IMG/VR virus record: IMGVR_UViG_3300009034_000055
Span: 1 to 50,712 of that record
From: a virus
Strand: one strand, 5' to 3'
DNA: 50,712 bases
Below the pieces are notes generated by a model that searched no databases, was not told the DNA's origin, and saw only the letters and a program-made list of their open reading frames with translations. A program made the translations under genes and the position numbers. Positions 10,120 through 47,588 of the stretch are shown here, piece by piece (the first letter of the stretch is position 1; each line of letters opens with the position of its first letter).

Positions 10120-10192
10120 AAAATTGGTTACGCCTCCATATTCATATATCTTTAATATATCTGATCCTCATTTTTTTAACAAAAAATTTTTT

Positions 10193-10566: not shown

Positions 10567-10720
10567 TAACTATAGTTATACATATTGCAAAATATTTTTA
10601 TTGGTTTTAAAAGGAGGGATTTCTAGATACGATTATTAAAGATTATTTTATTTTTTAAAACTATTTATTAAAATTAATATAAAAAATTAAAATTAAATTA
10701 ATCTAGAAAACTATTTATTT

Positions 10721-10787: not shown

Positions 10788-10807
10788 TAGTTCATTCTTT
10801 TTTAATA

Positions 10808-10966
10808 TTAAGAAAAGAAAAAAAATACAAAAGAAAGAAGATTAATAAAGAAAGAGAATTACAAAAGAAAGAAAATTAAAAATAAAAGAAAGAAAAGATA
10901 TAAGAGAAAGAAAAATTATAGAAGAAAGCAAAGTATAAAAGGAAAAAATGAAAAAGTCAAATTCAG
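10808..10966 (+). other. Polypurine (A/G) tract of about 160 bases
   Basis: The plus strand is almost entirely A and G, built from loosely repeated AAAGAAAGAA units with isolated pyrimidines. Such strand-asymmetric, easily melted DNA is seen at unwinding elements and triplex-prone sites. No reading frame of any length is present. Confidence 0.7.
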
Positions 10967-11054
10967 AAACAAAAAAATAAATAAAGTTGAGCTTGGTTTT
11001 TATGTAAAAAAATAATTAATGATTATCAACATGCCTTAATTTACATTGTCAGCA

Positions 11055-11153
11055 TACCTGAGAGCTACGTCAAGGAACGATTAGAAAAATATCTATGGTC
11101 TACTACTGTTTTTATAGATCTTCGTCTCATGTAGCTCTCAGGTACGTGAGACG
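11055..11153. ncRNA. Structured element, copy 1 (candidate small RNA or origin element)
   Basis: Outer arms 11055-11070 (TACCTGAGAGCTACGT) and 11129-11144 pair at 15 of 16 positions. An inner hairpin pairs ATCTAT (11091-11096) with ATAGAT (11114-11119). A competing stem, CGTCTCA (11123-11129) with TGAGACG (11147-11153), would break the outer stem, so two alternative folds exist. It shares outer-arm, GATTAGAA and GTCTCA segments with the element at 11274. Strand of action unknown. Confidence 0.5.
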
Positions 11154-11273
11154 GTTATTAAATATTTAATACAAAACCAAGAAAAAAGAGAAAGCTGAAG
11201 AAAAGTGTATTTTGGTATTTAAGGTAGAAACGAACTGCTGACGATTAGCATATTGCAATTGGATATTCTACAC

Positions 11274-11347
11274 ACCTGAGAGCCATTGTAGCCTATGATT
11301 AGAAGATACCCTATAACTTAGTATAGTTTTTTTATGGAATGGTCTCA
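11274..11347. ncRNA. Structured element, copy 2
   Basis: The left arm begins ACCTGAGAGC as in copy 1, but the following bases differ (CCATT instead of TACGT) and the right arm differs to match (AATGGTCTCA), giving a 10-bp stem with one bulged G. An inner hairpin CTATA/TATAG occupies the same place as the inner hairpin of copy 1 with different bases. GATTAGAA precedes it in both. Compensating change between copies supports a functional fold. Confidence 0.5.
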
Positions 11348-11376
11348 CGTGACTCTTAAGCGGGTTTAGATAGAAG

Positions 11377-12294: not shown

Positions 12295-14493
12295 TTACAT
12301 CCAGTCCATATCCATGTACAAACAAACGCGCTCACCGAAATGTGATATTAAGTAAGGATGACTAGAGTCAAAAAAATCATAAATTATTATGTCTTCTTTG
12401 TCTTTTGTTTTGCGTAAACCCCTTCCTACTGTTTGTAGTGTGGCGATTTCACTTTTACCACCTGCTCCGTTTATTAGTATATTTAAAGAGGGGATATCAA
12501 CACCCTCTTTCCAGACCGCTGTAGCCACAACACACTTTATTTTTTTTGAAATTAGTAGTTCCCGTATTTGTTCTCTATCGTCACCTTCTGTAGCTCCTCG
12601 TACAAAATGTATTATAAAGCTGTGTAACTCTTTTGCCATGTTTGTTAATATTTCACCATGTTCAATATGACGAACAATAATTAATACCGTTTCTCCTTTG
12701 TCCGTGTGTTGTTTAGCTATTTCTATTATTGCTTTATTTCTTGTTTTATTTTCCGTTACGCCAAGTTTATACACTTCTGCGTATTTATATTGTTCTCTAA
12801 TATTATGGTTATGTGGCATTTTTCTAAATACAATTTTTGGCTTAGCAAGAATAGCTTTTTTTTGTGCGTCTATGATTGTTAAGTCATCAATTAGTGGACC
12901 TACATATCCTTCCAAAGCTAATTTATTTTCTGTATGCTGTGGTAATGTAGCAGTGACACCAATACGAAAAGGAGCTAATATACTACCTAACACTTTTGCG
13001 TATGAACCAGTGAATGAACTTATATGATGGCATTCGTCAATAAAAACAGCATGATAGTAATCAATATATTTAGTGTGTACTTTTACATATGATTGTATTG
13101 TGGCAAGTGTTATTCGGCCTATTTCTTTTTTACCACCACCGAATACGCCGATGGTGTCTGATGGAAAACCGCATTCTATTAATTTGCTGTGTATCTGTTG
13201 TAGTAATGTGTTAGTATGACATAGAAATAATATATTATGTTCTTTTGGAATTGTAGACATAATTCCCAGAATTATGATCGTTTTACCACTATTATGTACA
13301 ACTATGCCATTAGCAACAAAATTTCTATATGGATCTTTACATATAATATCGTATGTATCTTCTATCCCAACGAAAGTAATGGATTTAACCTTGGAAAACT
13401 GGGGGTTACCTTGACCAAAGTAGGAATAATCTGAATGAAGTTGCTTATGTGTAGTTATTAATATCTTTTCTAAATTCAACACATCATTATTGTTATGATT
13501 TCCATCTTTATGGTGTATATGGTACTTATTAGGATTAACAAATTTTAATTTTTTGATCTCTACTGTATTATTTTGTAATATTTTTTTGTACTCATTTAAT
13601 GATATTTGATTTATATAAGATTCGTAAACCGCCCTATGGTATTCTACAACTTTATCCCAACCTATAGCATAGCTCCCTGATTTTATTTTTCTTGCATATG
13701 GATGATACCATAGCCTTCCTACAACATTATCCGGTACTTTTTTTTGTTTTGATTTATTATTTTTAGTAGCTTTTAAAGTGTCAACCATTATATTATCAAA
13801 TTTGGTTAGATATAAAAGCTTTTTCCATCCTTTTGATGTAAGAAACAAATGATCTTTTGTAGCTTTTATACAACAGTTATTATCTAATTCAAGTAAGTAT
13901 AGTTCCTTTTTACCAGAATAAACGACATCTTTAATTTCGTGCAGCAATATTTTGTTTTTATCATGTTTAAAACTTCGGACTTTCGTTACTATACATTCAT
14001 CAAAAGCCGGACCGTTTGTTTGACCAGATTTTCCATGATACTTTAAATATAGATGTCTTATTGTTACATACGATCCCTTTTTTGCCCTATTTATATTTAT
14101 ATGAGTATCTCCTGAAATACACCCAGTTGGTGCTTTTATTACACCTCTTTGTACGTTTATTGCAGATTGCATTAAACGTAGTTGATAATCCCTAAACTCT
14201 ATACCATCTATTTTAGGAGTAGTTACACATTTAATTTGTAAATCAACATCAATCCATTGTATTTTTATATCATTTTGTTCACAATAAGAAATAATTTTAT
14301 CTTTAAATCCATACAAAGTATAACGACTACCATTATTAGTAAAAATTAAAGATTTTGAATACACCTTTCTTTCTTTTTTATATCTACCTTGTCGCCAATA
14401 TTCTTTTTCATATTGCAATATCGGTGCTAATAATTTATGCCCACGGTTGATTTGGCAATAAGTGGCAGCGACAGTCGTTATTTTGATGTCCAT
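12295..14493 (-). CDS. SF2 DNA helicase (UvsW-like) interrupted by an intein
   Basis: A 732-residue precursor; removing the intein (residues 125-401) leaves a 455-residue helicase. The intein splits Walker A: VIKAPTG before it and SGKTIIIL after it rejoin as APTGSGKT. Later motifs are intact: FIDECHH (motif II), GVTAT (III), KCVVATAVWKEGVDIPSLN (V) and QTVGRGLRKT (VI). UvsW-type helicases unwind R-loops and branched intermediates and switch origin modes in T4, which suits this recombination-rich phage. The ATG at 14493 has AGGAG six bases upstream. The helicase cannot bind ATP until splicing occurs. Confidence 0.87.
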   Translation of the reverse strand: MDIKITTVAATYCQINRGHKLLAPILQYEKEYWRQGRYKKERKVYSKSLIFTNNGSRYTLYGFKDKIISYCEQNDIKIQWIDVDLQIKCVTTPKIDGIEFRDYQLRLMQSAINVQRGVIKAPTGCISGDTHININRAKKGSYVTIRHLYLKYHGKSGQTNGPAFDECIVTKVRSFKHDKNKILLHEIKDVVYSGKKELYLLELDNNCCIKATKDHLFLTSKGWKKLLYLTKFDNIMVDTLKATKNNKSKQKKVPDNVVGRLWYHPYARKIKSGSYAIGWDKVVEYHRAVYESYINQISLNEYKKILQNNTVEIKKLKFVNPNKYHIHHKDGNHNNNDVLNLEKILITTHKQLHSDYSYFGQGNPQFSKVKSITFVGIEDTYDIICKDPYRNFVANGIVVHNSGKTIIILGIMSTIPKEHNILFLCHTNTLLQQIHSKLIECGFPSDTIGVFGGGKKEIGRITLATIQSYVKVHTKYIDYYHAVFIDECHHISSFTGSYAKVLGSILAPFRIGVTATLPQHTENKLALEGYVGPLIDDLTIIDAQKKAILAKPKIVFRKMPHNHNIREQYKYAEVYKLGVTENKTRNKAIIEIAKQHTDKGETVLIIVRHIEHGEILTNMAKELHSFIIHFVRGATEGDDREQIRELLISKKIKCVVATAVWKEGVDIPSLNILINGAGGKSEIATLQTVGRGLRKTKDKEDIIIYDFFDSSHPYLISHFGERVCLYMDMDWM
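13291..14121 (-). mobile_element. Intein with HNH homing endonuclease
   Basis: A 277-residue intein. It begins with Cys (CISGDTHI, block A) and ends VVHN (block G: penultimate His, terminal Asn) before a Ser as the +1 extein nucleophile. TKDHLFLTSKGW is a block-B-like element. The central region has an HNH-type endonuclease signature, HIHHKDGNHNNND-LNLE, with a further HKQLH. All splicing residues look present, so it should be active. The nuclease would cut intein-free alleles of the same Walker A site, allowing spread between phages. Confidence 0.88.
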
Positions 14494-23833: not shown

Positions 23834-24316
23834 TTACGCTAGACTCCCAGTAGCTAAAAACATTGATGTACCATCACTGTATAAAGCAACTTTTCTTGTT
23901 GTGTCAAAATACGTTATGCCTGCTAACGGTATAGACACAGGAGCTGATACCACGTTAATCACTCTTAGTGCTGCTGATCCTGCTGTGTAGCCTATTAAAG
24001 ATGTGGTCTGTGTCTCTAAGCTGTTTACAGCCCCATGAATATCAGTAAATAACACTTTTGTAATTCTTTGTTCTACACTATCAAACTTTGAATGTGCTGC
24101 TGCGGAAGTGTCATCTTGACTTCTTGAAACATATACGTGGTTTGATGTAGCGTCAAAACTAGTTACTTTTACAACCTCATTTTCACACGTTATATAATAC
24201 GGTGCAATTCCTGGTAATGCTGAAACATCTGCTAATACCCAAATACTGGCCGTAGATGTAACAGCTTCATCCATTACCGTTTGTGCAAGATTTTTTAGGT
24301 TACTAAACACAGTCAT
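23834..24316 (-). CDS. Tail-region structural protein with re-used C-terminal module
   Basis: A 160-residue protein. Residues 1-95 are beta-rich (ALPGIAPYYITCENEVVKVTSFDATSNHVYVSRSQDDTSAAAHS), a pattern found in small tail or fibre-base proteins. The last ~60 residues (GYTAGSAALRVINVVSAP..., FDTTRKVALYSDGTSMFLATGSLA) are nearly the same as the end of the protein at 45791-46066. It lies between the DUF2460 and DUF2163 genes of the tail tip, so it is probably in the virion. Ribosome site GGGGAG seven to eight bases upstream. Confidence 0.55.
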   Translation of the reverse strand: MTVFSNLKNLAQTVMDEAVTSTASIWVLADVSALPGIAPYYITCENEVVKVTSFDATSNHVYVSRSQDDTSAAAHSKFDSVEQRITKVLFTDIHGAVNSLETQTTSLIGYTAGSAALRVINVVSAPVSIPLAGITYFDTTRKVALYSDGTSMFLATGSLA

Positions 24317-29732: not shown

Positions 29733-30209
29733 TTACCCTCCCGCTTTACGTACTATTTGTCTAATATATCGAGCAGTCGCCTTATTTAGTCTATCCATAA
29801 ATGTTTTATCCTTTTTTCTAGGTAGTATACGCCTTTTAGGTAAATGTTTCTTTGGACTACCAAACTCATGATACCGCCCATATTTTACACGTGTTCCTAT
29901 TACAATTCCTCTATTATTACTAAGCATACGAGTTTTAAAACTTGACTTTAACTTTCCGGTATCTCGTAATATTACAATTCTTCGCCTACTCTTTGCTTTC
30001 CTAACTTTAATCGTAATAGGACTTAACGCTGCCCACTTTCCCTCCTGTAATAGAGCGCCCTCTGCTGTAAAATTATCTGTAATCCATTTTTTAGTCTTTA
30101 TCCCCCATTGGACATACAAAGCACGGGGTTTCTTATACGCTAAAGCCAATCTATTCAGTCTGTTTATTGTTCCCCTCAAACTAGTTTGTAGTATTTTCAC
30201 ACTTAACAC
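29733..30209 (-). CDS. Tail completion protein (Mu gpG / virion morphogenesis type)
   Basis: A 158-residue very basic protein of the phage virion morphogenesis family: W-------FTAEGALLQEGKWAALSPITI--RKAKSRRRIVILRDTGKLKSSF, then IGTRVKYGRYHEFGSPKKHLPKRRILP. The 'LSP-T---R', 'L-DTG-L--S' and 'YG--HEFG' steps are the family signature. It joins tail to head. The start is a GTG overlapping the upstream TAG stop (TAGTG); another in-frame GTG is three codons in. Confidence 0.82.
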   Translation of the reverse strand: MLSVKILQTSLRGTINRLNRLALAYKKPRALYVQWGIKTKKWITDNFTAEGALLQEGKWAALSPITIKVRKAKSRRRIVILRDTGKLKSSFKTRMLSNNRGIVIGTRVKYGRYHEFGSPKKHLPKRRILPRKKDKTFMDRLNKATARYIRQIVRKAGG

Positions 30210-30985
30210 TATATATCACCATCTATTATATCCACTAATTCATCTATATAGTCTGTATCTATTTGTTGATCTTTAGCAGAGAGCAGATTAAATATTGGAT
30301 GATAATCTTCTTTACTTCCCCATATACGAGTATCAGATCTACTATTATAATAATTACCAGCAGTGTCTACTAAAGTATAGCTACCAGTTTCTAATCCGCC
30401 AAATAATTGTTCTAACTGCGCTTCCCTCTGTGTAATCCAAGCTGGTATGTCTCCACCATGTTTAACCGATTGATTTTTTAGAATATCTATTAATGCCATA
30501 TGCTTAGACAAATACGCAATAATCGGAGGAAAACTATTAGTATTTGTTGGAAACGGTACAGTATATCGTATACCTAACCGAATATTAATAATACTATCCA
30601 TATCACTAATTCTATTCTGTATTTTTTTGTTTGTCAATCCGGATATGGTATCGATTGTAGGGTATAACTCTCGTACATTATTTGGCGTAGAGTACAGGCC
30701 AGACCAATCTGCATCAGTCCGAATAACTTCAAATAACCCGCGTTTTTTATAATCAGTAGAAAAAACACTAAAATTCCATTCATAATAATAATGCCCTCTA
30801 GAATCCGGCACAGTATACATTGAATAGTAATCGTATGCTGTGCCACTCTGGTTGGCTGTTGCAGAGCTGATTAATGTACCATCACCACTAGTACTATTGT
30901 ATACAGCCAACCAAGGCGTACTATCAGGAAAAACCGATAACGTCATTGTAAATTGTCTACTATCACCAGCTTCTATACGTTCCAT
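30209..30985 (-). CDS. Head-tail connector (gp36/DUF1320 type) with N-terminal beta domain
   Basis: A 258-residue protein. The N-terminal ~95 residues (MERIEAGDSRQFTMTLSVFPDSTPWLAVYNST...GHYYYEWNFSVFSTDYKKRGLFEVI) form an Ig-like beta domain found in some connector proteins. The second half (YSTPNNVRELYPTIDTISGLTNKKIQNRISDMDSIINIRLGIRYTVPFP...PPIIAYLSKHMALIDIL) matches the helical gp36/DUF1320 adaptor. It attaches the portal to the tail completion protein. GGGG about nine bases before the ATG. Confidence 0.68.
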   Translation of the reverse strand: MERIEAGDSRQFTMTLSVFPDSTPWLAVYNSTSGDGTLISSATANQSGTAYDYYSMYTVPDSRGHYYYEWNFSVFSTDYKKRGLFEVIRTDADWSGLYSTPNNVRELYPTIDTISGLTNKKIQNRISDMDSIINIRLGIRYTVPFPTNTNSFPPIIAYLSKHMALIDILKNQSVKHGGDIPAWITQREAQLEQLFGGLETGSYTLVDTAGNYYNSRSDTRIWGSKEDYHPIFNLLSAKDQQIDTDYIDELVDIIDGDI

Positions 30986-32211: not shown

Positions 32212-34149
32212 TTAGGTAGGAGAATTTGTTATCATAAATTCCATGCCTGCTATATCCGTATCTTCCCCATAAGTACCTTCATAGCTAAATAACGCTAACA
32301 TTTTCGTGCCCTGTACAAAACCTAAACTACTAACTTCCCAAGTACCATCAGTCGTATTACTCTGTGTTGTTTGATATAATGTACCTAAATCGTCCTTATT
32401 AAATATATCAATATTACACAAAGCACTAATTATGGCATCACCATTCTTATCTGTACATATACCTGATAGTATCGAATAGACATCCACTACCGGTATAGAT
32501 AAATCATCAGACGTTAATATACTATCAGCAGTTATTTTTGACAATGCTTTTAATATACTATCAAATACAACTACATCGTCACTGTAAACTTTAAAATTGA
32601 TCTTGTGATATAAATCGGTTAATTTAACAAGATTATCAACTAGAACTACTACTTTTATTAACTTCGATTGCACACTATCAAATATAGCTATTTCATTAGT
32701 AAATATTTTTAATAAAGACTTCCTCGCTTTATCCGATACTAATATTTCGTCAATAAATACTTTTAATATCGTTTTTCTTATTGTGTCTGATATTGGTACT
32801 TCATCAGTAAGTACTTTATTAATAATTGTTTGTATTAGTGCTACTATGCTATCAGATAGATTTATACCATCAGCAAATACTTTTAACAACTCTTTCTTTA
32901 CAACATCAGATGTTAGAATTTCATCAGCAATTATTTTTAATGCGCATTTTCTTACCGTATCAGATACTAATATATTGTCAGTCATCGTTTTTAATAACGC
33001 TTTTCTTGCCGTATCAGATACTACTATATTATCAGTAAGCACTTTACTGATAATTATTTGTATTAGTGCTGTTATACTGTCAGATATACTAACGTTGTCA
33101 GTAAATACTTTTAGTAGCGCTTTTTTTGCCGTATCAGATATAACTATATTATCAGTAAGCACCTTACTAATAAGTATTTGTATTAGTGCTGTTATACTGT
33201 CAGATAGGTCTATATTATCAATAAATACTTTTAATAAGGCTTTTATTGACGTATCAGATATAACTATATCATCAGTAAATATTTTTAGTAGACTCTTCCC
33301 TATATTATCTGATACAGATACCTCATCAATAATTAATTTTAGTAGTGCTTTTCCTACACTATCAGATATACTAATGTTGTCAGTAAATACTTTTAGTAAG
33401 GCTTTTCCTACACTATCAGCTATACTAATGTTGTCAGTAAATACTTTTAATAACGCTTTTCTTGCCGTATCAGATACTACTATATTATCAGTAAGCACCT
33501 TACTGATAATCGTTTGGATGAGAACTATTATACTGTCAGATATACCAATATTATCAGTAATCGTTTTTAATAAACCCTTCCTTATATCATCAAATGTATG
33601 TACATTATCAGTAAATATTTTTAATAGCGCTTTTCTTACGCTATCAGATATAGTTATATCATCAGTAAATACTTTTAGTAAGGCTTTTCCTACACTATCA
33701 GATATACTAATGTTGTCAGTAAATACTTTTAGTAAGGCTTTTCCTACACTATCAGATATACTAATGTTGTCAGTAAGCACCTTACTAATAAGTATTTGTA
33801 TTAGTGCTGTTATACTGTCAGATATACTAACGTTGTCAGTGAATACTTTTAGTAGACTCTTCTTTGCATTATCTGATACAAATATTTCATCAATAAATAC
33901 TTTTAATACCGTTTTTCTTATTGTATCAAATGCGTGCACATCATCAGTAATTAATTTTAATAGTGCTTTCTTTGCGTCATCAGATGTACGTACATCATCA
34001 GTAATTAATTTTAATAGTGCTTTCTTTGCGTCATCAGATGTACGTACATCATCAGTAATTATTTTTAATGCCAATTTTTTTGCTGTATCAGATATGGTTA
34101 TATTGTCAGTAATCGCTTTTAATAGCGTTTTTCTTACTGTATCAGATAC
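32212..34149 (-). pseudogene. Repeat adhesin, third fragment (18-residue repeats plus C-terminal domain)
   Basis: Continuation of the giant repeat gene in another frame. It is open from the repeat edge at 34149 (VSDTVRKTLLKAITDN...) to 32212. About two dozen units of 18 residues (KALLKVFTDN-S-SDSV-) are followed by a degenerate junction module (SVQSKLIKVVVLVDNLVKLTDLYHKINFKVYSDDV) and the same C-terminal beta domain as the three-blade protein. The only in-frame start near its 5' end is a TTG without a ribosome site, so it is not an independent gene as it stands. The reading break lies at 34149/34150, the edge of the 119-bp repeat. Confidence 0.6.
34031..34149 (-). repeat. 119-bp direct repeat, copy 1
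   Basis: As far as I can see by eye, identical to 34408-34526. It encodes two to three 18-residue units. The break in reading frame lies exactly at its upper end. Confidence 0.85.
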
Positions 34150-37172: not shown

Positions 37173-38429
37173 TTAACCTTTATTTACATATTCTTTATAC
37201 CCATAAAATATATTTTTTTCTTTATCTACATGCATACATTGTATTGATGTATCTAATATAGATTTTAAACCGTCTACACAAGAAAATTGTTGTCCAAAAT
37301 AAGTATCTTCTGTGATTTGTATTTTTCCTGCAATTTCTATTGTTTTATACCAAGGAAATGAGATTTTCGAAAATATATCGGTTTTTATTAACGTACATCC
37401 AGAACACATTACAATCGGATTTTCTATAAGGTCGCCAATTTTAAAGTTTACGCGAATCGGTCTACCATTTTTTTCCACCATAGAACATGATTCTAGTGGG
37501 TAATATTTTCTATAATAAAACCCCCCTGCCATATCATACCCTTGTTTAATATGCTCCATTAATTTACATAGTGCGTCAGAAGGTAATACTACATCATCAT
37601 CTACAAAAAATATATAATCAAACCCATTTTCTAATGCCTTTTTCACAGCAAAATTACGTCCATCGGCAACAGAAAAGCCATACGGCTGTTCCATCACAAC
37701 GGACATTGCTGCTGGAAATTGTACTTTTGAAAAATCTGTGACATTAGTACATTCTTTAGTTCTATGTAATGCAACAATTAAAATTTTTTCAGTATTCTTA
37801 TTCAATATAATTTTTGCTACTGGATCGTCCACATTTTCTTTTGTATCGTAATTGATTTGGTTACTATTACCACCTACACCATCTTTTATACTATATTTTT
37901 CAGGATGATGTAATTGAAAATCTGTGTCCCCATACTTTAATTGTGTGTGTAATGCCATTATAATTTTTTCCCACTCTCGTATCTCTCTAGTACGTTCTTG
38001 TGCTGTTTTTTGTTGAAGCGTATTATGATATACTTTTCTATCTTTGATATTCTTAAGAGTTTTTAACTTTAGTTCTGCCCTCCTTTTATTTGCCCCCTCA
38101 TCAAGACCAGCAATGTAAGCTTCTACTCCATTTATATCAAGTAACAATCCTTCAATTTCATTGTTTAACTGTTTATTGTCAAAACTAAGTTCAATTAACG
38201 CCTGTACATGTACAGCCTGTTCCCCAATTGCCTGCCAATATTTAGAATCTACTGTAGGCAAAACAGCATCACTTAATACACTATTTTCCATTTCGTAGTT
38301 CGAACGAAATAAAGATCTAGTAGCAAAACGATGCTCAAATTTCGTTTTTTGCGCCTGTAAAAAATCAATATCCGATGAACTAATAAGAGTTTTATCCTTA
38401 AATAATTCTGGTACTCCAATTACATCCAT
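37173..38429 (-). CDS. GT2-like glycosyltransferase with long coiled N-terminal domain
   Basis: 418 residues. Residues 1-190 are mostly helical and charged (FKDKTLISSSDIDFLQAQKTKFEHRFATRS...IEGLLLDINGVEAYIAGLDEGANKRRAELKLKTLKNIKDRKVYHNTLQQK), resembling a structural or oligomerisation segment. From about 215 a GT-A fold begins: ILIVALHRTKE, AMSVVMEQPYGFSVADGRNFAVKKALENGFDYIFFVDDDVVLP with the metal-binding DDD, then GGFYYRKYYP and EDTYFGQQ. It would transfer a sugar from a nucleotide donor. It lies between fibre-like genes and the adhesins, so the virion or its fibres are likely acceptors (inference). Confidence 0.72.
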   Translation of the reverse strand: MDVIGVPELFKDKTLISSSDIDFLQAQKTKFEHRFATRSLFRSNYEMENSVLSDAVLPTVDSKYWQAIGEQAVHVQALIELSFDNKQLNNEIEGLLLDINGVEAYIAGLDEGANKRRAELKLKTLKNIKDRKVYHNTLQQKTAQERTREIREWEKIIMALHTQLKYGDTDFQLHHPEKYSIKDGVGGNSNQINYDTKENVDDPVAKIILNKNTEKILIVALHRTKECTNVTDFSKVQFPAAMSVVMEQPYGFSVADGRNFAVKKALENGFDYIFFVDDDVVLPSDALCKLMEHIKQGYDMAGGFYYRKYYPLESCSMVEKNGRPIRVNFKIGDLIENPIVMCSGCTLIKTDIFSKISFPWYKTIEIAGKIQITEDTYFGQQFSCVDGLKSILDTSIQCMHVDKEKNIFYGYKEYVNKG

Positions 38430-38487
38430 AATTTTGCTTGCTCCTCTTGTAATACTAATAGTGCTTGCTCCTCTACTTCCACCTTAA

Positions 38488-38841
38488 TTATATTTTATTA
38501 TCGACCCACGTTTGTCCACTATTAATATCAAATGGTTGTGATATTAATGTATGTGTAAAACCAAATTCACATACAACCTCCTTTACAATTTCCGCTGGAT
38601 ACATACTCTGCCCAATAGTATTCAGTTCTTCTATTGTGCTCTCATATACTTTCCCCACATTATTACTTTTCCAGTTATCAATGTCACTATCAGGACCATT
38701 AAGTTCCATTAAATTTGTATACCTTGCTGTATACTGCCCCGATGCTTTTATTTTACATGTAACAGTTTGTGGTAACACTGTTGTGCAATTCTCAGCACCG
38801 GCAACACTTGTCGAACTTTGGAATACAAAATACCTACTCAT
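38488..38841 (-). CDS. Small structural-type protein, unknown
   Basis: 117 residues, beta-rich and low in charge: YFVFQSSTSVAGAENCTTVLPQTVTCKIKASGQYTARYTNLMELNGP, later EVVCEFGFTHTLISQPFDIN. No catalytic motif. AGAGGTG eight bases before the ATG, two bases after the upstream gene's stop. The context of fibre genes suggests a virion or fibre accessory protein. Confidence 0.55.
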   Translation of the reverse strand: MSRYFVFQSSTSVAGAENCTTVLPQTVTCKIKASGQYTARYTNLMELNGPDSDIDNWKSNNVGKVYESTIEELNTIGQSMYPAEIVKEVVCEFGFTHTLISQPFDINSGQTWVDNKI

Positions 38842-38843
38842 AA

Positions 38844-39296
38844 TTATGCACCTCTACTACCTAATGTTGTCTCAACTGTAAGATGCAAATAATCGCTACT
38901 ACCCAAAGTTCCTAATGTACTTTGCAGTCGCTGAAACATCGTTCCACTTGTCGTCTCATTAAACACCCCCGCCTCTGTCAACGCTACAGATGTAACAGAA
39001 TCAGTATCGCCAGCAAATGTTGCAACCGTGATCCAGACATTTTCAGACGCTTGTGATGTAGCCATAGCATTTCGTGCAACCTCACCTACCAATGCTTCCT
39101 GATTCAACGACGCCGCTGTAGTACCTGTCCCAACCGCAATATGAGCCATCGCAGACCCAGGAGACGTTGTTAGGTACGTAGCCAACCAATCCATACCCAC
39201 ATCAACTACTAAATTTTTAGCTTCTGAATATTCCTCAGAACCATCAGCCCTTATAATCCGTGTTTTCCAAACTGCTTTAATCGGTAATTTATCCAT
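38844..39296 (-). CDS. Tail-fibre/appendage-type structural protein
   Basis: 150 residues with a pattern common in phage appendage proteins: WKTRIIRADGSEEYSEAKNLVVDVGMDWLATYL, then MAHIAVGTGTTAASLNQEALVGEVAR, a variable strand region (TVATFAGDTDSVTSVALTEAGVFN) and a final LHLTVETTLGS strand. The 'IAVGTGTTAA...L..E' step is frequent in small tail proteins. AAGGAG about nine bases before the ATG. Confidence 0.62.
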   Translation of the reverse strand: MDKLPIKAVWKTRIIRADGSEEYSEAKNLVVDVGMDWLATYLTTSPGSAMAHIAVGTGTTAASLNQEALVGEVARNAMATSQASENVWITVATFAGDTDSVTSVALTEAGVFNETTSGTMFQRLQSTLGTLGSSDYLHLTVETTLGSRGA

Positions 39297-39429
39297 TACT
39301 CTTTCTCCTTACTAAATTATTATTAATATACTCCATTTCCACCCTTGTAAAACCTCTCACCCCCTGCCCTGGCACACCTTATCTAAATACAAACTTTAGT
39401 TTACCAGATAAATTTATACCACACTTAAT

Positions 39430-39989
39430 TTATGCTATAATAAAATCAATAATTATTTGACCCCTTCTTAAATCTAACCACATCAATAACTGCTCTATTT
39501 CTCGTTCAGGCGTAAACCATAATGCCTCATAGCTAATAGTACAGTCATATTTTCTTATAGCTGCTGTATATTTATTTACTAAAGAAACCGCCTGTGCAAT
39601 ATTTTGTGGTGAATCATTCCAAAATTCATTTTTCTGTATCATTGACCATATTATATCAAAAAAATTACGTTTTACAAATACAATACGTACTTTTGGTAAT
39701 AATTTCTTGGCCCTTTGCACTTTAAATAAATGACTAGGCGTCTTTTCTACTATATATTTTGCTGGTTCACACAACTTTAATGCAGTATTCAATTTTTCAA
39801 GAATTTCACTATCTGATAATCCTGCGCTACAAATAACCCCGTTTCTCTAGTATCACGTACCTTCTTCATCCCTAGCATTTCAGGTAATAGTAACCTGCAT
39901 TCAGGATGACTACTTATAATTGAATGTACCCAAGTTGTGCCCGATCTTGGTATACCAACAATAAATATTAGTTTACTGCCATCTATCAT
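39430..39989 (-). pseudogene. Sulfotransferase split by a frame disruption
   Basis: The first frame (39989-39789, 66 residues) starts MIDGSKLIFIVGIPRSGTTWVHSIISSHPE, the PAPS-binding loop of sulfotransferases. It stops early. The rest is in the -1 frame and ends at 39430: SAGLSDSEILEKLNTALKL, KYIVEKTPSH, then FVKRNFFDIIWSMIQKNEFWND, matching the 3'-phosphate-binding 'EKTPSH' and 'R-P-D---S' regions. The frames join best at the GGGG of 39840-39837, which would need one more G. Rejoined length about 186 residues, short for the family. It could be a decayed gene, a sequencing indel or a slippage switch. Possible role: sulfating the glycan made by the neighbours. Confidence 0.65.
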
Positions 39990-40842
39990 TATAAATACTT
40001 AAATATTGCTGGGCAGTTTTTTCCACATTAAACTCATCTAAGATTTTATCGCGTAACCACTCGCTTAAGTTAGCATCATATTTTTCTATCTCATACCGTA
40101 AAGATTCGCAAGTAAATGTTGTTTGCCCCTTTAATCGTCCTGTAAAATTATCTTGCTTTAATATATCAAATGATTCTTGATTTACTATCCCACCACCACA
40201 AAATTCATGCATATAATACGGACGATAATCTGCTGATATCACATTTCTTCCGCATGCCATGGATTCTAACGCCCCACGACCAAAAGAAATAACTAAATCA
40301 ACTTCGTTAATTAATCCAATAATATCACTTACATGTATATCTATCATTAAAACCTCAAAATCTTTACAAGCTGCCTTAACTATCTCTTTTGCTGCACCAC
40401 CATAATTAGGCGATGATAAATACAACACTCGCTTTAGTTTTTTGTTTATTGGTTTATTAGGAAAAAACTTAACACAATCAATACCATTTCGAATCACTTG
40501 GTAATTCCCTTGTGCAATTTCTTCTGACACAGCAACGTATGCATCTGCACCCAAAGGAAAAAATTCTATATCAACAACTTTGCTATGCGATGTAAAAATA
40601 CGAAAAATATCTTCCGGTATCCTACTAAAGCATGGTGTATGGTTTACTATTGCAAAATCATAAATATTATCTATCTTAGTAACAACTGAACAAAATTCTG
40701 AGACCTTTTCACTCATTATTCCAGGATGATTAGTATAAATATCAACAGTATGCGATTTTATTAACTCTTTAGCTAATGCGTACGTCCAAGCCTCAGTACC
40801 ATATCTATAATGCATCGAATTATTTGTAATAAGTATTCTCAT
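39973..40842 (-). CDS. GT4-like glycosyltransferase
   Basis: 289 residues with a GT-B plan. The N-terminal half (MRILITNNSMHYRYGTEAWTYALAKELIKSHTVDIYTNHP) holds the acceptor-side loop; the C-terminal half has RVLYLSSPNYGGAAKEIVKAACKDFEVLMIDIHVS, EVDLVISFGRGALESMACGRNVISADYRP, the donor-nucleotide site with an E-S-M-A-C-G step. The usual E-x7-E is reduced to a single Glu. Overlaps the sulfotransferase start by 17 bases, so they are one operon. Confidence 0.75.
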   Translation of the reverse strand: MRILITNNSMHYRYGTEAWTYALAKELIKSHTVDIYTNHPGIMSEKVSEFCSVVTKIDNIYDFAIVNHTPCFSRIPEDIFRIFTSHSKVVDIEFFPLGADAYVAVSEEIAQGNYQVIRNGIDCVKFFPNKPINKKLKRVLYLSSPNYGGAAKEIVKAACKDFEVLMIDIHVSDIIGLINEVDLVISFGRGALESMACGRNVISADYRPYYMHEFCGGGIVNQESFDILKQDNFTGRLKGQTTFTCESLRYEIEKYDANLSEWLRDKILDEFNVEKTAQQYLSIYNDRWQ

Positions 40843-40845
40843 ATC

Positions 40846-41673
40846 CTATGCTCTACATGCTGCATCTGCATTTTCTTTACCTTCCCATGTAGAACGCCCT
40901 TCACCTAAATGTTTAACTCGATATGGTATAGATACTACAGCTTTACCCATATTCTTAATACATGTCTCAGCATCCCTTGTCACCCACTCATCAAATCCAA
41001 TATATGGACGGACCCAATGACCACCTTGAAATGGTACCATCTTCTGTATATCAGAAACCCGCATCACTAAATGACAACCAGACGTAATTGGCTTTAAAAA
41101 TGCCATACCATATGCAGGCAAAGTAAATACCTGTGTCACTTGTAATCTACAATCATGGTACCCACTTACTATACCAATAGTAGGGTGATCATTAAGTATC
41201 TGTATATATTCACTAATCCTACTACATAGCTGAATATCATCATCCATAAAAACTACATGTGTATACTCATGTAACCTATGCACAATACTTATATTTAATG
41301 CTTCGCATATTCCCACACGTTTATTAACATAACTAATTTCTACATTTTTTAACTGTAGATCATCTGGCAATACACAAATACCATCAACTGTAATTATTAC
41401 ATCAGCTTTAATATCATTATATTCGTTTATCGACCTAATTGTTTTTTCTAGTAAATCATTCCGTGTTCCTAACGTTATAACAGATATCAATACTCTTCTA
41501 TCCATCAAATATATTGGTTGATAATTATCGCATTTCCTCCGATTAAAATTCAGTACCACCATACGGGTACCCTCAAATCGCTTTTTACGTTCATCTATAC
41601 ACTCATAAATACAAAAGCTTTTTAAATTAGTAGCATTATAAAATCTATATCTACATGTTATACATACACACAT
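40846..41673 (-). CDS. GT2-like glycosyltransferase with Cys-rich N-terminus
   Basis: 275 residues. Residues 1-55 contain clustered Cys (MCVCITCRYRFY..., SFCIYECIDERKKR, RRKCDNYQP), a small metal-binding domain of the kind found alone in other bacteria. The GT-A domain follows: VLISVITLGTRNDLLEKTIRSINEYNDIKADVIITVDG, VGICEALNISIVHRL, VVFMDDDIQL (metal-binding DDD), and a late GGHWVRPYIGFDEWVTRDAE region. The start is the ATG at 41673 that overlaps the previous stop as TAATG. Confidence 0.75.
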   Translation of the reverse strand: MCVCITCRYRFYNATNLKSFCIYECIDERKKRFEGTRMVVLNFNRRKCDNYQPIYLMDRRVLISVITLGTRNDLLEKTIRSINEYNDIKADVIITVDGICVLPDDLQLKNVEISYVNKRVGICEALNISIVHRLHEYTHVVFMDDDIQLCSRISEYIQILNDHPTIGIVSGYHDCRLQVTQVFTLPAYGMAFLKPITSGCHLVMRVSDIQKMVPFQGGHWVRPYIGFDEWVTRDAETCIKNMGKAVVSIPYRVKHLGEGRSTWEGKENADAACRA

Positions 41674-44537
41674 TATGCATATTTCCCTTCGTATGGCTCG
41701 CACATCCCATTAATTTGCGCATTTATCAATATTTTAAAATCTTCTGCACACTCTATACGTATAACACGTGTACCCTGCTGATCCATCTGTGGTCCTTGCT
41801 TTGCCGCTACAATATTCCAAGTTATCTCAAATCCACGGTTTAACATTCTCAATGCTTCACTATAATAGGTCATACCATCTATTTGCATATGATCAGCAAC
41901 ACCTAGAAAATACTCACGATACGCTTTAATTACCTCCTCACACATAGTATGTTGCCTAGGAGTAGGACGCCCACCACTAGCCTCTATCTCATAACGCGCC
42001 ATGTGAATCTGATCCCTCATCATAAGGAACCTACCTAGCCGACGTTCTGGGTTTTCCTGTCTATCCCGAAGTAACAAATTAATATTTCTATGAAACCTAC
42101 CCCGCCGAATCTCTTCAGTTAAATATCCATTATGTGCAATTTCTATATCATCTAATAACATTGCTGGTTGCACAGATTTATTTATCTCGGTCTCAACATG
42201 CTCATGTATAATCCCGTAAAATTGCACACCTTTACCAGTACGCCAAATCCGAACAGGTAAATCAGGTTTAAAGCAATTTACAGGTTGTACACTAAAATGA
42301 TGCTGCCTAATAGCATACCCAGTATATACATTATCTTTTAAGTATTTTCTAAGATTCTCAGACAACAACAAAATCTCATCGCTATCAATCCATACCACCC
42401 AATCTGTATCAATATATTTAAGTGTTTCATTCCTAGCTTGTGCAAACCCTACATCAAGCGGATTAGGTCCAATATATACCCTATTTGTATACTGTTTTGC
42501 TATTGATATAGTGCTATCAGACGATCCAGTATCAACTATTACTATATCATCTACTATATGCTGTACACTTTTTAAAGCCTGATGTAACATACTTTCACAG
42601 TCTTTTACAATCATACTTAGTGTTACTGTTTGACGTGGACTTTGTATTGCCAATTTTCTCTCTATATTAATTTGCCCAGTACGTCGATTACTGCTCATAA
42701 TATATGACACAAAATGCCACCCAATTATACCTCCAGCACGGCTCTTTCCAGCATAACCAACACTAATAGAATACCCACTTTTTGCCCCCAATAAATCTGT
42801 AAGATCTGCACGTTCTAAATTCCACATCCATCCTTCAAGAGCACTAGCCGAATATGTATCAACAATATCAGGTACTAAATCACCCCATTCACCTGTTGGA
42901 GTTGATATAATTATTGTACCACCATTAATTACCGACTTTTCAAGCAAATCAATAAATACATGTGGTTCCTTTTGCAGGTGTAGCACATCCAAACTCAATA
43001 CACAATCACACTTTTCACTACGATACACCCATTCAGATAGTGCATAAAAAGATACATTCTCCGGTACACCTTCCACACATGCCAATTCTTGTAGTCCCTT
43101 TATTTTTTCATCAACTATATCTGTCCCTATAAACTGTATACTCGGAAAAACTTCAGCTAACCCAAATATATATTGCCCAATATCACAACCATAATCCAAT
43201 ACAGTTTTTACTTCTCTCCCATGCTTAACCAAATCAGAAATTACTTTTTTAGCATACTCTAGTTTAACATTATTTCGATACTGTGCAATCCCAGCAATAC
43301 TATCAATCTGTGGTTTACACTTTTCAAATTGCTCTTTAAACTTACCTTTATCAAAAGATATTGCTTCCTGATTTTTTATTTTTATACACATATACTCATC
43401 ATTATAAAATGAAAAATGCCTTAGCATTCTATCTTCATTATTAGTTTGCTCAGCAAAGTAATCAAATATATTTGATTCCCATTCTGCTGCAACATCCGAC
43501 CAATCCATACTACTAGAACGTTTATACCCCAATTCTATAAACTGCTCACGTTTTACGTCATCACCTACTAATATAAGCAATTCTCGAATAAACTTCGCTT
43601 TATACTCTTGAGTTGCTGCATTACCATCAATAAACACACCCGCGTCACCCAATGTCTCAGGCAAAGCCCCTAACCTACTTGTAAGCACCACCACACCTGC
43701 GCACATACATTCTATCGCACTGATACAGGATATTTCCTCAAATCCCGTAGGATACGCATATACCGCCGCCTCTTCATAATGCTTATATAATACGTGCTTT
43801 GGTAAACTTCCCAAATTAGTACAATTAGGCAACTGCTCAATACGTCCCCACAACGCCTCATAATATGCTTTCATCTCTGGTACTGTATGATCGTACCCTG
43901 CGACATACAAATGTATTTCAGGATCAATTCGCAACAATTGTTCCATTATTCCATTAATGCCAACTAAATTCTCAAGACCTCGCTCTGGTCGTGCAGCATA
44001 CATAAGTTTCTTTGGGTTCTTCTTACTTCCACCTTTCCCAAAATCACTAAGCGTAATACCATTCCTAGTTTGCCACATCGCCTCCTTCGGTATTTTTAAC
44101 GTATCAACTTGTTGATCAATATGAAACTTACTCAAACCTGTTATACAATTAAGGTTCCACAATACTTTATGAATCTGCGCTCGCAACGGCTTAACAGCCA
44201 AATCATGATTCCATAATATTGTCATTTTCGCTTTATTCGGAACACCAAGTATACTTGAATTCCGCTGGACAATTAAAACATCATGCTGACAATTCTGAAT
44301 AAAATTTACTGCGTCTTGAATTGGTCGATAAGTTACCCCGTTATGCAAACCCGGCCCACCCGTTTTCGGATTTAAGCAATTAGAAAATACAGTTACAACA
44401 TGCCCCCTTTGTACAAGCTCTTCTGACAATTTCACCGCTGCTGTTTCCGAACCACCTAGACTATGTCGTGTCAAACTACCACCACTAAATTCCATGCCAG
44501 GTACAATAAACACAATACTTAGTTTTATCCCTTTCAT
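41673..44537 (-). CDS. Trifunctional GT4 - methyltransferase - GT2 enzyme
   Basis: 954 residues. 1-360: GT4 glycosyltransferase (SLGGSETAAVKLSEELVQRGH, AARPERGLENL, and E-x-x-C-I-S-A-I-E-C-M-C-A-G at 267-280, the E-x7-E-like donor site). 425-610: SAM methyltransferase (VLDYGCDIGQYIFGLA, FIGTDI, CDCVLSLDVLHLQ, GGTIIISTP). 640-900: GT2 (LSMIVKDCESMLHQAL, DIVIVDTGSSDSTISIA, WVVWIDSDE with the DSD metal site at 718-720). It could build and cap a short methylated glycan by itself. The fourth part (about 900-954) is small and unassigned. Its stop overlaps the next GT gene start. Confidence 0.82.
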   Translation of the reverse strand: MKGIKLSIVFIVPGMEFSGGSLTRHSLGGSETAAVKLSEELVQRGHVVTVFSNCLNPKTGGPGLHNGVTYRPIQDAVNFIQNCQHDVLIVQRNSSILGVPNKAKMTILWNHDLAVKPLRAQIHKVLWNLNCITGLSKFHIDQQVDTLKIPKEAMWQTRNGITLSDFGKGGSKKNPKKLMYAARPERGLENLVGINGIMEQLLRIDPEIHLYVAGYDHTVPEMKAYYEALWGRIEQLPNCTNLGSLPKHVLYKHYEEAAVYAYPTGFEEISCISAIECMCAGVVVLTSRLGALPETLGDAGVFIDGNAATQEYKAKFIRELLILVGDDVKREQFIELGYKRSSSMDWSDVAAEWESNIFDYFAEQTNNEDRMLRHFSFYNDEYMCIKIKNQEAISFDKGKFKEQFEKCKPQIDSIAGIAQYRNNVKLEYAKKVISDLVKHGREVKTVLDYGCDIGQYIFGLAEVFPSIQFIGTDIVDEKIKGLQELACVEGVPENVSFYALSEWVYRSEKCDCVLSLDVLHLQKEPHVFIDLLEKSVINGGTIIISTPTGEWGDLVPDIVDTYSASALEGWMWNLERADLTDLLGAKSGYSISVGYAGKSRAGGIIGWHFVSYIMSSNRRTGQINIERKLAIQSPRQTVTLSMIVKDCESMLHQALKSVQHIVDDIVIVDTGSSDSTISIAKQYTNRVYIGPNPLDVGFAQARNETLKYIDTDWVVWIDSDEILLLSENLRKYLKDNVYTGYAIRQHHFSVQPVNCFKPDLPVRIWRTGKGVQFYGIIHEHVETEINKSVQPAMLLDDIEIAHNGYLTEEIRRGRFHRNINLLLRDRQENPERRLGRFLMMRDQIHMARYEIEASGGRPTPRQHTMCEEVIKAYREYFLGVADHMQIDGMTYYSEALRMLNRGFEITWNIVAAKQGPQMDQQGTRVIRIECAEDFKILINAQINGMCEPYEGKYA

Positions 44538-44570
44538 ACGCTTCTCTGCTCCTCTGCTACAATCTTTACA

Positions 44571-45611
44571 TTAATACCATCTAAACCCGTCTTTTACTTT
44601 ACGATATAACCATAAATAATCACGAACTACATTCGGCTTACCCCATCGCTTTTCTGCAACTCTTCTACAGTCTATAGAGTTAATATTCTTAATCTTATCA
44701 TCATCACGTAAATAATCTACAAACTGCTGTTCATCTTTAACCAATAGCCCAGTAATACCATGCTCTACAGTGTGCGACATAGCCCCTCTATCATATACCA
44801 ATACAGGGCACCCGCACATCAAAGCTTCCATATTTTTATAACTCGTAATTTCCATCTGATTTACTGGGTAAACCAACGCTTTCGCTTTTTGTAGACATTC
44901 TATCTTAACCTCATCAGAAACACTACCCAAATACTCTATGTCACCAATTGACTGCCGTATCACTTCATTTTGATAACTTTCTGGATCACTCGCAACACCC
45001 TTACCACCAATTATTTTTAATTTAACACCAGCTTCTCGACAAATTCTAATAGCGTCTAAACACCCCTTCTCATAGGACAACTTACCCACAAAAACAAACC
45101 AATCCTCCCTTTTTACATCTGGGTTGTATTGATATTTTTGAGTATCGACTAATATTGTTTCTTGTACAATCGACTCTTGTTGATACACGTCCATAAATCT
45201 TACTTTTGACCACTCAGATAAACTAATAACATTATGATGTGGTTGAGGAAATTTTGCAATGTAGGGGTCGTGCCAATACACACTAATAGTAGGTGCATCT
45301 AAGCCCTCTATCCGTGAATACCAATGTTGGTGTGTTAAATCATGTATTACACCATACTGATCATTTTTAATTTGCTGTAAATTATTTAATACAGCCTCCT
45401 GCTCTCTACCAAGATCAGAAGTAGCATCAAACCCAACAGAAAAAAGGGTAACGCCCATAGGTGGGACAGTACCCTTTGCAGCAAATAATACCACATTACC
45501 GCCTTGACGCCTCAGCTCATCAGCAAAATCCCAAGCCAAACGCTCCATACCACCATAACATAAATCTGGTGTAACAGCAAAAGCCAAAGCACTCTGCACC
45601 ATAATTTTCAT
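44571..45611 (-). CDS. GT4-like glycosyltransferase
   Basis: 346 residues with the GT-B fold of family 4: GGMERLAWDFADELRRQGGNVVLFA near the N-terminus, a WYSRIEGLDAPTISVYWHDPYI acceptor segment, then FVGKLSYEKGCLDAIRICREAGVKLKIIGG, LQKAKALVYPVNQMEITSYKNMEALMCGCPVLVYDRG (the E...E donor-binding step) and HTVEHGITGLLV. It probably starts the glycan chain or adds to it. First enzyme of the carbohydrate block downstream of the capsid genes. Confidence 0.83.
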   Translation of the reverse strand: MKIMVQSALAFAVTPDLCYGGMERLAWDFADELRRQGGNVVLFAAKGTVPPMGVTLFSVGFDATSDLGREQEAVLNNLQQIKNDQYGVIHDLTHQHWYSRIEGLDAPTISVYWHDPYIAKFPQPHHNVISLSEWSKVRFMDVYQQESIVQETILVDTQKYQYNPDVKREDWFVFVGKLSYEKGCLDAIRICREAGVKLKIIGGKGVASDPESYQNEVIRQSIGDIEYLGSVSDEVKIECLQKAKALVYPVNQMEITSYKNMEALMCGCPVLVYDRGAMSHTVEHGITGLLVKDEQQFVDYLRDDDKIKNINSIDCRRVAEKRWGKPNVVRDYLWLYRKVKDGFRWY

Positions 45612-45790: not shown

Positions 45791-46066
45791 CTATGCCAAA
45801 CTACCAGTCGCCAAAAACATAGACGTACCATCACTAAATAATGCAACTTTTCTTGTAGTGTCAAACTGCATTATTCCAGCGGCTGGAATAACTGTAACAG
45901 CAGAAGCAACATTTATAACTCTAAGAGAAGCCGATCCCACTGTATAACCAGATATTGTTCCCACTTCTGTAGTTAATGCCCCCAAAGAATTAGTAATGCT
46001 CGTAATTCCACTATCATCATTATCCTGTGATCTAGCACTTTTATATAACGCCCAAATACTACGCAT
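45791..46066 (-). CDS. Small structural-type protein with re-used C-terminal module
   Basis: 91 residues. The N-terminal 30 (MRSIWALYKSARSQDNDDSG) are unlike others; the C-terminal ~60 (GYTVGSASLRVINVASAVTVIP-AGI-QFDTTRKVALFSDGTSMFLATGSLA) are almost the same as the end of the tail protein at 23834-24316. It sits just after the capsid gene. GAGGG about nine bases before the ATG. The shared end is probably an interaction or capping module. Confidence 0.55.
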   Translation of the reverse strand: MRSIWALYKSARSQDNDDSGITSITNSLGALTTEVGTISGYTVGSASLRVINVASAVTVIPAAGIMQFDTTRKVALFSDGTSMFLATGSLA

Positions 46067-46212: not shown

Positions 46213-47181
46213 TTACTGACTAGAACCCACACCAGTCCTCAAAAATCCCAAATTACTATCCACAATTTTCTCATCCTGATAATACCCAACATGTAAGTCT
46301 TGTCTCCCTGTTTTATCGTCCATCGGAAAAGTTCTTACTTGCATATGCGGAACACCTTCGATCATCCATCTAAAAGAATACCCAAATGTAGGTTCCTCTT
46401 TACTTGGTGTAGGAGGGGCATAAAACAAAAGTACATTGTCATTCCAAATCTTAGAGAGTGCCATAGTCGCCCCCTCAGCCGCTGAATTACGATATGCACC
46501 ACCCACCAATACGTTTTCTATTTCCAACAAATCCCGTACATGCGCTACCCTGGGTATGCCACCACCATGAGGAAAGATCAGGGTTTGTATCTTTTCAGAG
46601 TCCCTAAACTTACGCCAAGAAGCTTTACCAAATACAATACCATTCGGCATATATCCAGTGAGATCTTCAAACGTAGCTATGTCCCCCTGCAAATCTAAAT
46701 ACGGATCTGCATTACTAGTACCCCATGCTGATGCCGTAGTAGTCGAACTTCCTACATTCGAAGTGCTATTTACCTGATTTGCAACACGAAGCTCGTAATT
46801 AATATTCAATATATTAGTTAGAAATCGCGCACGAATTATCTGTGTATTCAATGCCGCATCTGCATTCTTCAATTCCTCCCTAGTTAGATATGTCCCAAGT
46901 GCATGATTTTTTGCATAATAACCGTCACTAGAAACATCAAACGAAATATAATTAGGAAGCCGTCCAGGACTCCTATAATCTGGCTCGTCTCTAAACATAT
47001 CCCCCTGATCCATTTTATAGAATCGATCCGATTGTTTGTCTACTGGAACAATCGGCATAATCATATTAGCAATAAAACCCCTCGGTTGGTAATTAATAAC
47101 CACCTGACTCAATGCTGCATCAATATGCACATCACTTGGATCAAGATCATATTGTTTTACAGTAAAAATATCACTACTCAT
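46213..47181 (-). CDS. Major capsid protein
   Basis: A 322-residue capsid protein, expected HK97 fold: helical N-arm (DPSDVHIDAALSQVVINYQPRGFIANMIMPIVPVDKQSDRFYKMDQGDMFRD), GYYAKNHALGTYLTREELKNAD, the spine helix (LNTQIIRARFLTNILNINYELRVANQV), a P-domain (GYMPNGIVFGKASWRKFRDSEKI) and an E-loop end (EPTFGYSFRWMIEGVPHMQVRTFP). It is between the decoration and glycan genes. The third ATG (47181) has GGGGGA seven bases upstream; the first ATG at 47196 has only a weak site. Confidence 0.88.
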   Translation of the reverse strand: MSSDIFTVKQYDLDPSDVHIDAALSQVVINYQPRGFIANMIMPIVPVDKQSDRFYKMDQGDMFRDEPDYRSPGRLPNYISFDVSSDGYYAKNHALGTYLTREELKNADAALNTQIIRARFLTNILNINYELRVANQVNSTSNVGSSTTTASAWGTSNADPYLDLQGDIATFEDLTGYMPNGIVFGKASWRKFRDSEKIQTLIFPHGGGIPRVAHVRDLLEIENVLVGGAYRNSAAEGATMALSKIWNDNVLLFYAPPTPSKEEPTFGYSFRWMIEGVPHMQVRTFPMDDKTGRQDLHVGYYQDEKIVDSNLGFLRTGVGSSQ

Positions 47182-47210
47182 ATCCATATCCCCCATATTC
47201 TTTACAAATA

Positions 47211-47588
47211 CTATGCAAGTGCACTAATAGCATTTGAACAATTCAGTACCGTTGTTGCTATCATCCCAGACGCACAGCCATCAACAATAAATCCAAATGT
47301 TTTTGTACCAGAAGTAGCAACAGTCGCCCAACCAGAATCAGCTACGCTAAGTAAATCCCCATACGAACAAGCGCCGCCAACACGTATTTTTGAAACCCCT
47401 ATCGCTGCAACATTTGCATGTTGTGCTGATTCTGGTTTATTTTGTAGTACACCTGCACAATCTGAACCAGCAGTATCAGTAATATTTACTTTATTATCAC
47501 CAGTCAACTTTACACAGTAAAATTGTAGGCCGCTAAGATCAGCAGCAGCCAATGCCGGAAACCCCATCTGTTGTCTCTCGTAAGCCAT
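47211..47588 (-). CDS. Capsid decoration protein, DUF2190 type
   Basis: 125 residues with the DUF2190/decoration pattern: AAADLSGLQFYCVKLTGDNKVNITDTAGSDCAGVLQNKPESAQHANVAAIGVSKIRVGGACSYGDLLSVADSG. It should bind the outside of the capsid lattice at threefold or related sites. AAAGGAG seven bases before the ATG. Order scaffold - decoration - capsid is standard for this phage type. Confidence 0.85.
   Translation of the reverse strand: MAYERQQMGFPALAAADLSGLQFYCVKLTGDNKVNITDTAGSDCAGVLQNKPESAQHANVAAIGVSKIRVGGACSYGDLLSVADSGWATVATSGTKTFGFIVDGCASGMIATTVLNCSNAISALA

What the first reader, a model, noticed from the sequence alone, without database searches (positions are those of the whole stretch)
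37173..45611. Carbohydrate-modification island between capsid and adhesin genes
Five glycosyltransferase genes (carrying six GT domains), a methyltransferase domain and a sulfotransferase lie on the late strand directly after the capsid gene and before the repeat adhesins, interleaved with fibre-like proteins. Known phage glycosyltransferases mostly modify DNA or host O-antigen and are early genes; here late position favours glycosylation of the virion (capsid, decoration protein or fibres), perhaps to hide from defences or to bind lectins. Sulfated or methylated glycans on a phage particle would be unusual.
Basis: partly seen in the sequence, partly recalled or inferred. Interest (0 to 1): 0.7.

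Follow-up and report, generated by a model that had tools for sequence, protein, structure and literature searches.

The report
Capsid-linked sugar-building enzymes in a phage
This phage carries sugar-attaching enzymes right after its capsid gene, and one of them (three enzymes fused into one) follows the same capsid gene in every sufficiently long related viral contig examined, so these phages probably coat their own particles with sugars, although no sugar has been measured yet.

Summary
The island is real. The fusion gene (44537-41673: GT4, methyltransferase, GmaR/SunS-type GT2), a GT4 gene and a GT2 gene are firm. Two further glycosyltransferase (GT) calls are weak. The sulfotransferase is split by a frameshift. 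All main genes lie on one strand, so "late strand" adds nothing; position does. The first GT gene is one small ORF after the capsid gene (MCP).

The fusion gene is a fixed neighbour of this capsid type. Starting from the fusion, 62 of 83 viral contigs have the MCP upstream, none downstream. Starting from the MCP, 67 of 67 contigs with enough sequence carry the fusion 0.1-1.7 kb downstream. Outgroup capsids almost lack GTs. Fusion and MCP distances correlate (r 0.84) and catalytic residues are conserved. Relatives of the 38429-37173 GT also adjoin capsid genes of unrelated families, whose capsid or tail proteins often end in (Gly-x-Thr)n tags.

Best reading: cytoplasmic glycosylation of virion proteins, capsid first; a candidate acceptor is the Ser/Thr-rich MCP C-terminus. 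The other GTs and the sulfotransferase are lineage-specific additions. Virion glycosylation by phages is known in mycobacteriophages; this capsid-linked three-domain enzyme is a new variant. Acceptor and sugar are unmeasured.

The parts
46213..47196 (-). major capsid protein (MCP), phrog_1005; C-terminus ends GVGSSQ, candidate glycan acceptor
   Evidence: phrog_1005 E 2e-57; C-terminal Ser/Thr pattern
47211..47588 (-). cement/decoration-like protein, rival acceptor
   Evidence: phrog_673 E 1e-11, PF09956 E 0.012
45791..46066 (-). 91-aa ORF between MCP and island; 70 aa are 66% identical to part of the tail-region ORF 24316-23834
44571..45611 (-). GT4 glycosyltransferase, lineage-specific addition
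   Evidence: PF00534 E 2e-16; PDB 8x3q/7fg9 E 2e-16
41673..44537 (-). conserved three-domain enzyme: GT4 (about 1-365), SAM methyltransferase (about 427-572), GmaR/SunS-type GT2 (about 635-850), helical C-terminus
   Evidence: linkage to MCP
40846..41703 (-). probable GT2 glycosyltransferase (weak; true start probably downstream of 41703)
   Evidence: phrog_2456 E 0.009; motif by eye; start options
39973..40842 (-). possible GT4-like glycosyltransferase, by sequence motif only
   Evidence: no GT family hit; inference
39430..39989 (-). sulfotransferase (PF13469) split into two frames by a frameshift
   Evidence: PF13469 E 3e-9 and 5e-11 on the two pieces; sequence
38844..39296 (-). fibre-like protein; homologues follow the fusion gene in 15 of 83 contigs
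   Evidence: phrog_5417 E 2e-13, phrog_4176 tail fibre E 3e-12; 64% identical in L304
38488..38841 (-). ORF of unknown function in the island
   Evidence: no family hit
37173..38429 (-). GT-A enzyme related to phrog_1574 and STIV A197, with an extra N-terminal helical region of about 200 aa
   Evidence: PF00535 E 1e-8; A197 Z 17.5, rmsd 2.7, 170 aa aligned, 23% identity
34519..37170 (-). kelch-like repeat protein directly after the last GT, possible acceptor
   Evidence: 132-nt repeats; ORF
32212..34074 (-). repeat protein (NISISDSVGKALLKVFTD type); similar repeat ORF in the same slot in L304 and L347
   Evidence: 54-nt repeats
29733..30985 (-). g30 and neck genes that close the slot; they directly follow the fusion in 38 of 83 contigs
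   Evidence: phrog_26 E 1e-14

Best explanation
The island makes a glycan on the phage's own virion proteins in the cytoplasm. The core is the fusion enzyme 44537-41673: its GmaR/SunS-type GT2 domain puts the first sugar on a virion protein, the GT4 domain extends it, and the methyltransferase domain methylates the glycan. The likeliest acceptor is the MCP, perhaps its Ser/Thr-rich C-terminus, with the cement protein as alternative. The other GTs, the fibre-like protein and the repeat proteins are an expansion of the same slot, perhaps adding sugars or serving as further acceptors. Shown here: domain content, conserved catalytic residues, fixed linkage and co-inheritance with the MCP, absence of evident membrane segments. 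Inferred: protein as acceptor, order of steps, MCP C-terminus as site, any benefit to the phage.
For: Linkage from both sides: 62 of 83 fusion contigs have the MCP upstream on the same strand, none downstream (nine sampled MCPs plus L219 are phrog_1005); 67 of 67 MCP-selected contigs with at least 1.5 kb downstream carry the fusion. Outgroup MCPs: 1 of 50 records over cut-off for GT2 and 1 of 50 for GT4. Fusion-MCP Mantel r 0.84, 0 of 2000 permutations. Invariant GT4 E276 and R183, GT2 D718/D720 and H778-E779-H780 in 61 of 61; MT G450 61 of 61. GT2 domain: GmaR E 2e-28, SunS E 2e-17; GmaR glycosylates flagellin (PMC9638930). MCP C-termini have Ser/Thr in the last 3 residues in 70 of 75 fusion-clade members against 15 of 80 outgroup members. 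Glycans at C-termini of capsid and tail tube are reported for mycobacteriophages (PMC12619734). phrog_1574-type GTs beside capsid genes of three other families with (GxT)n tags nearby.
Against: No glycan, acceptor or activity has been measured. The C-terminus contrast is a single clade difference among 29 clade-specific positions. GT2 and GT4 domains alone do not fix the acceptor. Contigs are partly redundant and mostly fragments. The tag evidence comes from relatives of the other GT, and the window itself has no (GxT)n tag. The fusion model has low confidence outside GT4.
Confidence: 0.72

Rival explanations
1. The GTs glycosylate the fibre and repeat adhesin proteins of the same slot, in the manner of adhesin glycosylation loci, rather than the capsid shell.
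For: Fibre-like gene and repeat ORF follow the fusion in L304 and L347, fibre in 15 of 83; the last GT abuts the kelch-like gene by 2 nt; phrog_1574-type GTs also sit by collagen-like tail fibres.
Against: In 38 of 83 contigs g30/neck follows the fusion within 100 nt, leaving no room for such genes between them, so the conserved enzyme does not need adhesins in that slot.
Confidence: 0.14
2. The enzymes alter the host surface glycan (LPS or capsule) to block superinfection.
For: GTs in tail-fibre regions of pelagimyophages have been read this way (PMC7029224).
Against: No evident membrane segment in any island enzyme; GT2 domain closest to flagellin/peptide GTs; invariable capsid linkage is not expected for this role.
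Confidence: 0.08
3. The enzymes glycosylate phage DNA.
For: Phage GTs that hypermodify DNA are known (cited in PMC12619734); weak match of 38429-37173 to TAGT, E 0.041.
Against: No Tet/JBP match in window or 42 relatives (the control did not ring, so weak) and no base-hydroxylation gene among the window ORFs scanned with Pfam; capsid linkage unexplained.
Confidence: 0.03
4. The linkage is positional inheritance only: a metabolic or cargo gene fixed by chance in the head operon of one clade, with no link to the virion.
For: The fusion-bearing MCPs are one clade (support 0.949), so linkage may reflect one ancestral insertion.
Against: Catalytic residues kept at about 37% median identity; an unrelated GT family repeats the pattern beside three other capsid types and in Manatee Spring phages.
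Confidence: 0.03

Closest known systems
Mycobacteriophage virion glycosylation (Che8 and others, Freeman 2023, read through PMC11256854 and PMC12619734)
   Same: phage GTs, glycans on capsid and tail-tube proteins at their C-termini
   Different: in Maravista the GTs lie near the 3' end of the genome, not fixed beside the MCP; I did not compare the enzymes by sequence; the original paper was not held
GmaR / SunS peptide and protein GT2 enzymes
   Same: GT2 domain related by profile (GmaR E 2e-28, SunS E 2e-17); GmaR acts on flagellin
   Different: here fused behind GT4 and methyltransferase domains and tied to a capsid gene
STIV A197
   Same: GT-A fold with the 38429-37173 enzyme (Z 17.5, 23% identity); suspected to glycosylate the STIV coat protein (PMC10551542)
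   Different: tailed phage, unrelated capsid, extra N-terminal helical region
Manatee Spring podovirus MW202524 GT cluster
   Same: GT2-TPR-GT4 fusion, further GT and methyltransferases just after the MCP
   Different: domain order swapped, methyltransferases separate, different phage type

Membership tests
phage virion glycosylation system | covalent glycan on a virion protein | not testable with these tools
   needs mass spectrometry
phage virion glycosylation system | phage-encoded GT with intact catalytic residues | tested here: met
   D718/D720, HEH 778-780, E276, R183 invariant in 61 of 61
GmaR/SunS-type GT2 | sequence homology of the GT2 domain | tested here: met
   E 2e-28 and 2e-17 with the five-sequence profile
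GmaR/SunS-type GT2 | transfer of sugar to a protein or peptide | not testable with these tools
   no activity data
STIV A197-like GT | GT-A fold close to A197 | tested here: met
   Z 17.5, rmsd 2.7, 170 aa aligned; human LH3 scores equally (17.7), so closeness is not exclusive
Gtr-type O-antigen conversion | membrane GT/flippase (GtrA, GtrB, Gtr) set | tested here: not met
   no evident membrane segment in island enzymes by hydropathy; only weak GtrB-like hits, E 0.05
DNA-glycosylating GT system | base-modification enzymes such as Tet/JBP alongside | tested here: inconclusive
   none found, but the control set did not ring
PAPS sulfotransferase (PF13469) | one intact reading frame | tested here: not met
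   split across two frames

The most novel reading that the evidence does not exclude
A whole clade of uncultured siphoviruses carries, as an obligatory part of its head operon, one enzyme that starts, extends and methylates a glycan on the Ser/Thr-rich C-terminus of its capsid protein; and an unrelated GT family does the like on short (Gly-x-Thr)n tags at the C-termini of capsid, decoration and tail proteins in other phages and prophages. Capsid glycosylation would then be common in phages, with readable acceptor tags.
Probability: 0.4. Interest if true: 0.85.

Novelty: new variant of a known kind. Interest (0 to 1): 0.68.

Why it matters
If true, many phages build sugars on their own shells with enzymes fixed next to the capsid gene, and the acceptor sites can be predicted from sequence. 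That would bear on how particles avoid or meet host surfaces and immune systems, and it gives a simple co-expression test in a laboratory strain.

Tried and rejected
DNA-level search in named phages: no match. Sulfotransferase in named phages: none. For some searches and 114/119 I queried the two sulfotransferase frames joined into one read-through protein. DNA pattern across the frameshift in viral contigs: no hit, so mutation and assembly error cannot be told apart. First MCP scan (A1) gave only 26-34% relatives and missed the true clade. Tet/JBP search uninformative. Counts for GT4a, GT2b, GTc, GT2d and g32 are invalid (stale files in my script); one search replaces them. Lambda-E-type MCPs beside phrog_1574 GTs do not carry Ser/Thr C-termini themselves (2 of 32); there the tag is on a neighbouring ORF of about 120 aa. 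Window ORFs have no (GxT)n tag. Cyanophage S-SM2 relative lies by baseplate genes, not the MCP. Host not identified: the genome scan with the phrog_1574-type GT gave rumen/gut MAGs, not relatives of the fusion.

Full report
What the window is. The record is an IMG/VR virus contig of 50,713 bases, without a completeness estimate and ending inside the head gene at 50712, so probably incomplete. Its main genes are all on the - strand: RecA, gp32-like, DNA polymerase, helicases at low coordinates, siphovirus tail and head genes towards 50712. The MCP is phrog_1005; named phages hold only 23-28% identical MCPs among the listed hits.

The island. From the MCP downwards: 91-aa ORF, GT4 gene, a 954-aa fusion (GT4, methyltransferase, GT2), a probable GT2, a possible GT4-like gene, a frameshifted sulfotransferase, a fibre-like protein, an unknown ORF, a GT2 gene, then repeat proteins and, at 30985, g30 and neck. 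Two of the five GT calls are weak; the sulfotransferase is in two frames. Genes are closely packed, several overlapping or a few nt apart.

The fusion enzyme is a capsid-module gene. A scan with its GT4 part gave four contigs with the full-length protein in the same place. A profile of five then gave 215 candidate loci, the best 80 nearly all full length. In 62 of 83 contigs the MCP profile finds the MCP upstream on the same strand, none downstream; 9 of the other 21 have under 1.5 kb upstream (repeated in 119). In 38, g30 or neck follows within 100 nt. Ten MCPs checked are phrog_1005. The reciprocal scan, selected by MCP alone, gave 79 contigs apart from the near-identical fragment L002: 67 carry the fusion 123-1665 nt downstream, and the 12 without it have less than 1.5 kb downstream. 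More distant MCPs (26-34%) lack it: 1 of 50 records over cut-off for PF00535, 1 of 50 for PF00534. The fusion-bearing MCPs form one clade, support 0.949. Fusion and MCP distances correlate, r 0.84 over 50 sequences; neck-MCP 0.72, neck-fusion 0.77. Catalytic residues are kept. No named phage record covers 80% of the fusion. Contigs are partly redundant, and identical samples recur.

What it acts on. The GT2 domain matches GmaR (E 2e-28) and SunS (E 2e-17) best among solved structures. GmaR transfers GlcNAc to flagellin (PMC9638930); SunS as a peptide glycosyltransferase is from my own knowledge. The GT4 part folds like UDP-sugar GT4 enzymes (BshA, MshA, Z about 28). No island enzyme shows an evident membrane segment. 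Together these favour a soluble protein acceptor. The MCP C-terminus of the fusion clade ends in NSST, GSSQ, TSSS or VTSV: Ser/Thr in the last three residues in 70 of 75, against 15 of 80 outgroup MCPs. This is one clade contrast, one of 29 clade-specific positions, hence a candidate only. Mycobacteriophage glycans are reported at capsid and tail-tube C-termini (PMC12619734).

The additions. Extra GT-like ORFs occur in only 3 of 83 fusion contigs, so the window's further GTs are a lineage-specific expansion. The fibre-like and repeat ORFs are older: L304 and L347 have MCP, fusion, fibre, repeat ORF, g30, neck in this order.

The last GT and its relatives. The 38429-37173 enzyme is a GT-A protein close to STIV A197 (Z 17.5, 23% identity) and to human LH3 (Z 17.7). 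Relatives (phrog_1574 type) in 80 viral contigs lie within 1.5 kb of an MCP in 56, within 60 nt in 41, over three MCP families (families). Manatee Spring phages show the same place. In 70 of 80 loci a neighbouring ORF carries a (GxT)n run, mostly at its C-terminus: 89 of 539 near against 14 of 949 far ORFs, five control motifs not enriched (overlapping ORFs and related loci inflate the significance). All 17 phrog_544 MCPs carry it. Flavonifractor phage Chenonceau, whose MCP is 77% identical to that of L100, has neither a tag on MCP or major tail protein nor the GT in the stretch examined. Homologues of its major tail protein in GT-bearing contigs do end in the tag. The window has no such tag.

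Known or new. Virion glycosylation by phages is known; a three-domain enzyme fixed beside one capsid type, and GT-linked (GxT)n tags, I did not find described in the papers I could search (open-licence papers only). I rate it a new variant of a known kind.

Noticed in passing
L095-L174, e.g. L100:1630-2568, L135:7387-7788: Short (Gly-x-Thr)n tags at the C-termini of capsid, decoration-like and tail proteins next to phrog_1574-type GTs; 70 of 80 loci. Possibly glycosylation acceptor tags.
   Followed up: partly
L144:6369-7298, L113:7033-7926: A TagF/TarL-like polyol-phosphate transferase relative lies between MCP and GT in several contigs, suggesting phosphopolyol additions to the virion.
   Followed up: no
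12295-14493: Helicase with an intein-like insert (PF14890, HNH-type hits).
   Followed up: no
45791-46066 and 23834-24316: Two copies of a fibre-like segment, 66% identical over 70 aa, one after the MCP and one in the tail region.
   Followed up: no
10120-11376: AT-rich stretch (22% GC around 10001-11000) without a listed long ORF; possibly an origin region.
   Followed up: no
L228 / G109:20201-20356: Another virus contig with a GT4 relative also has a sulfotransferase match.
   Followed up: no
L178-L216: phrog_1574-type GT relatives in rumen/gut Clostridia, Actinobacteria and Methanobrevibacter MAGs, probably proviruses.
   Followed up: no
50712 end; L002: Another IMG/VR contig begins at the same base as the window's high end, perhaps a common assembly break or genome end.
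   Followed up: no
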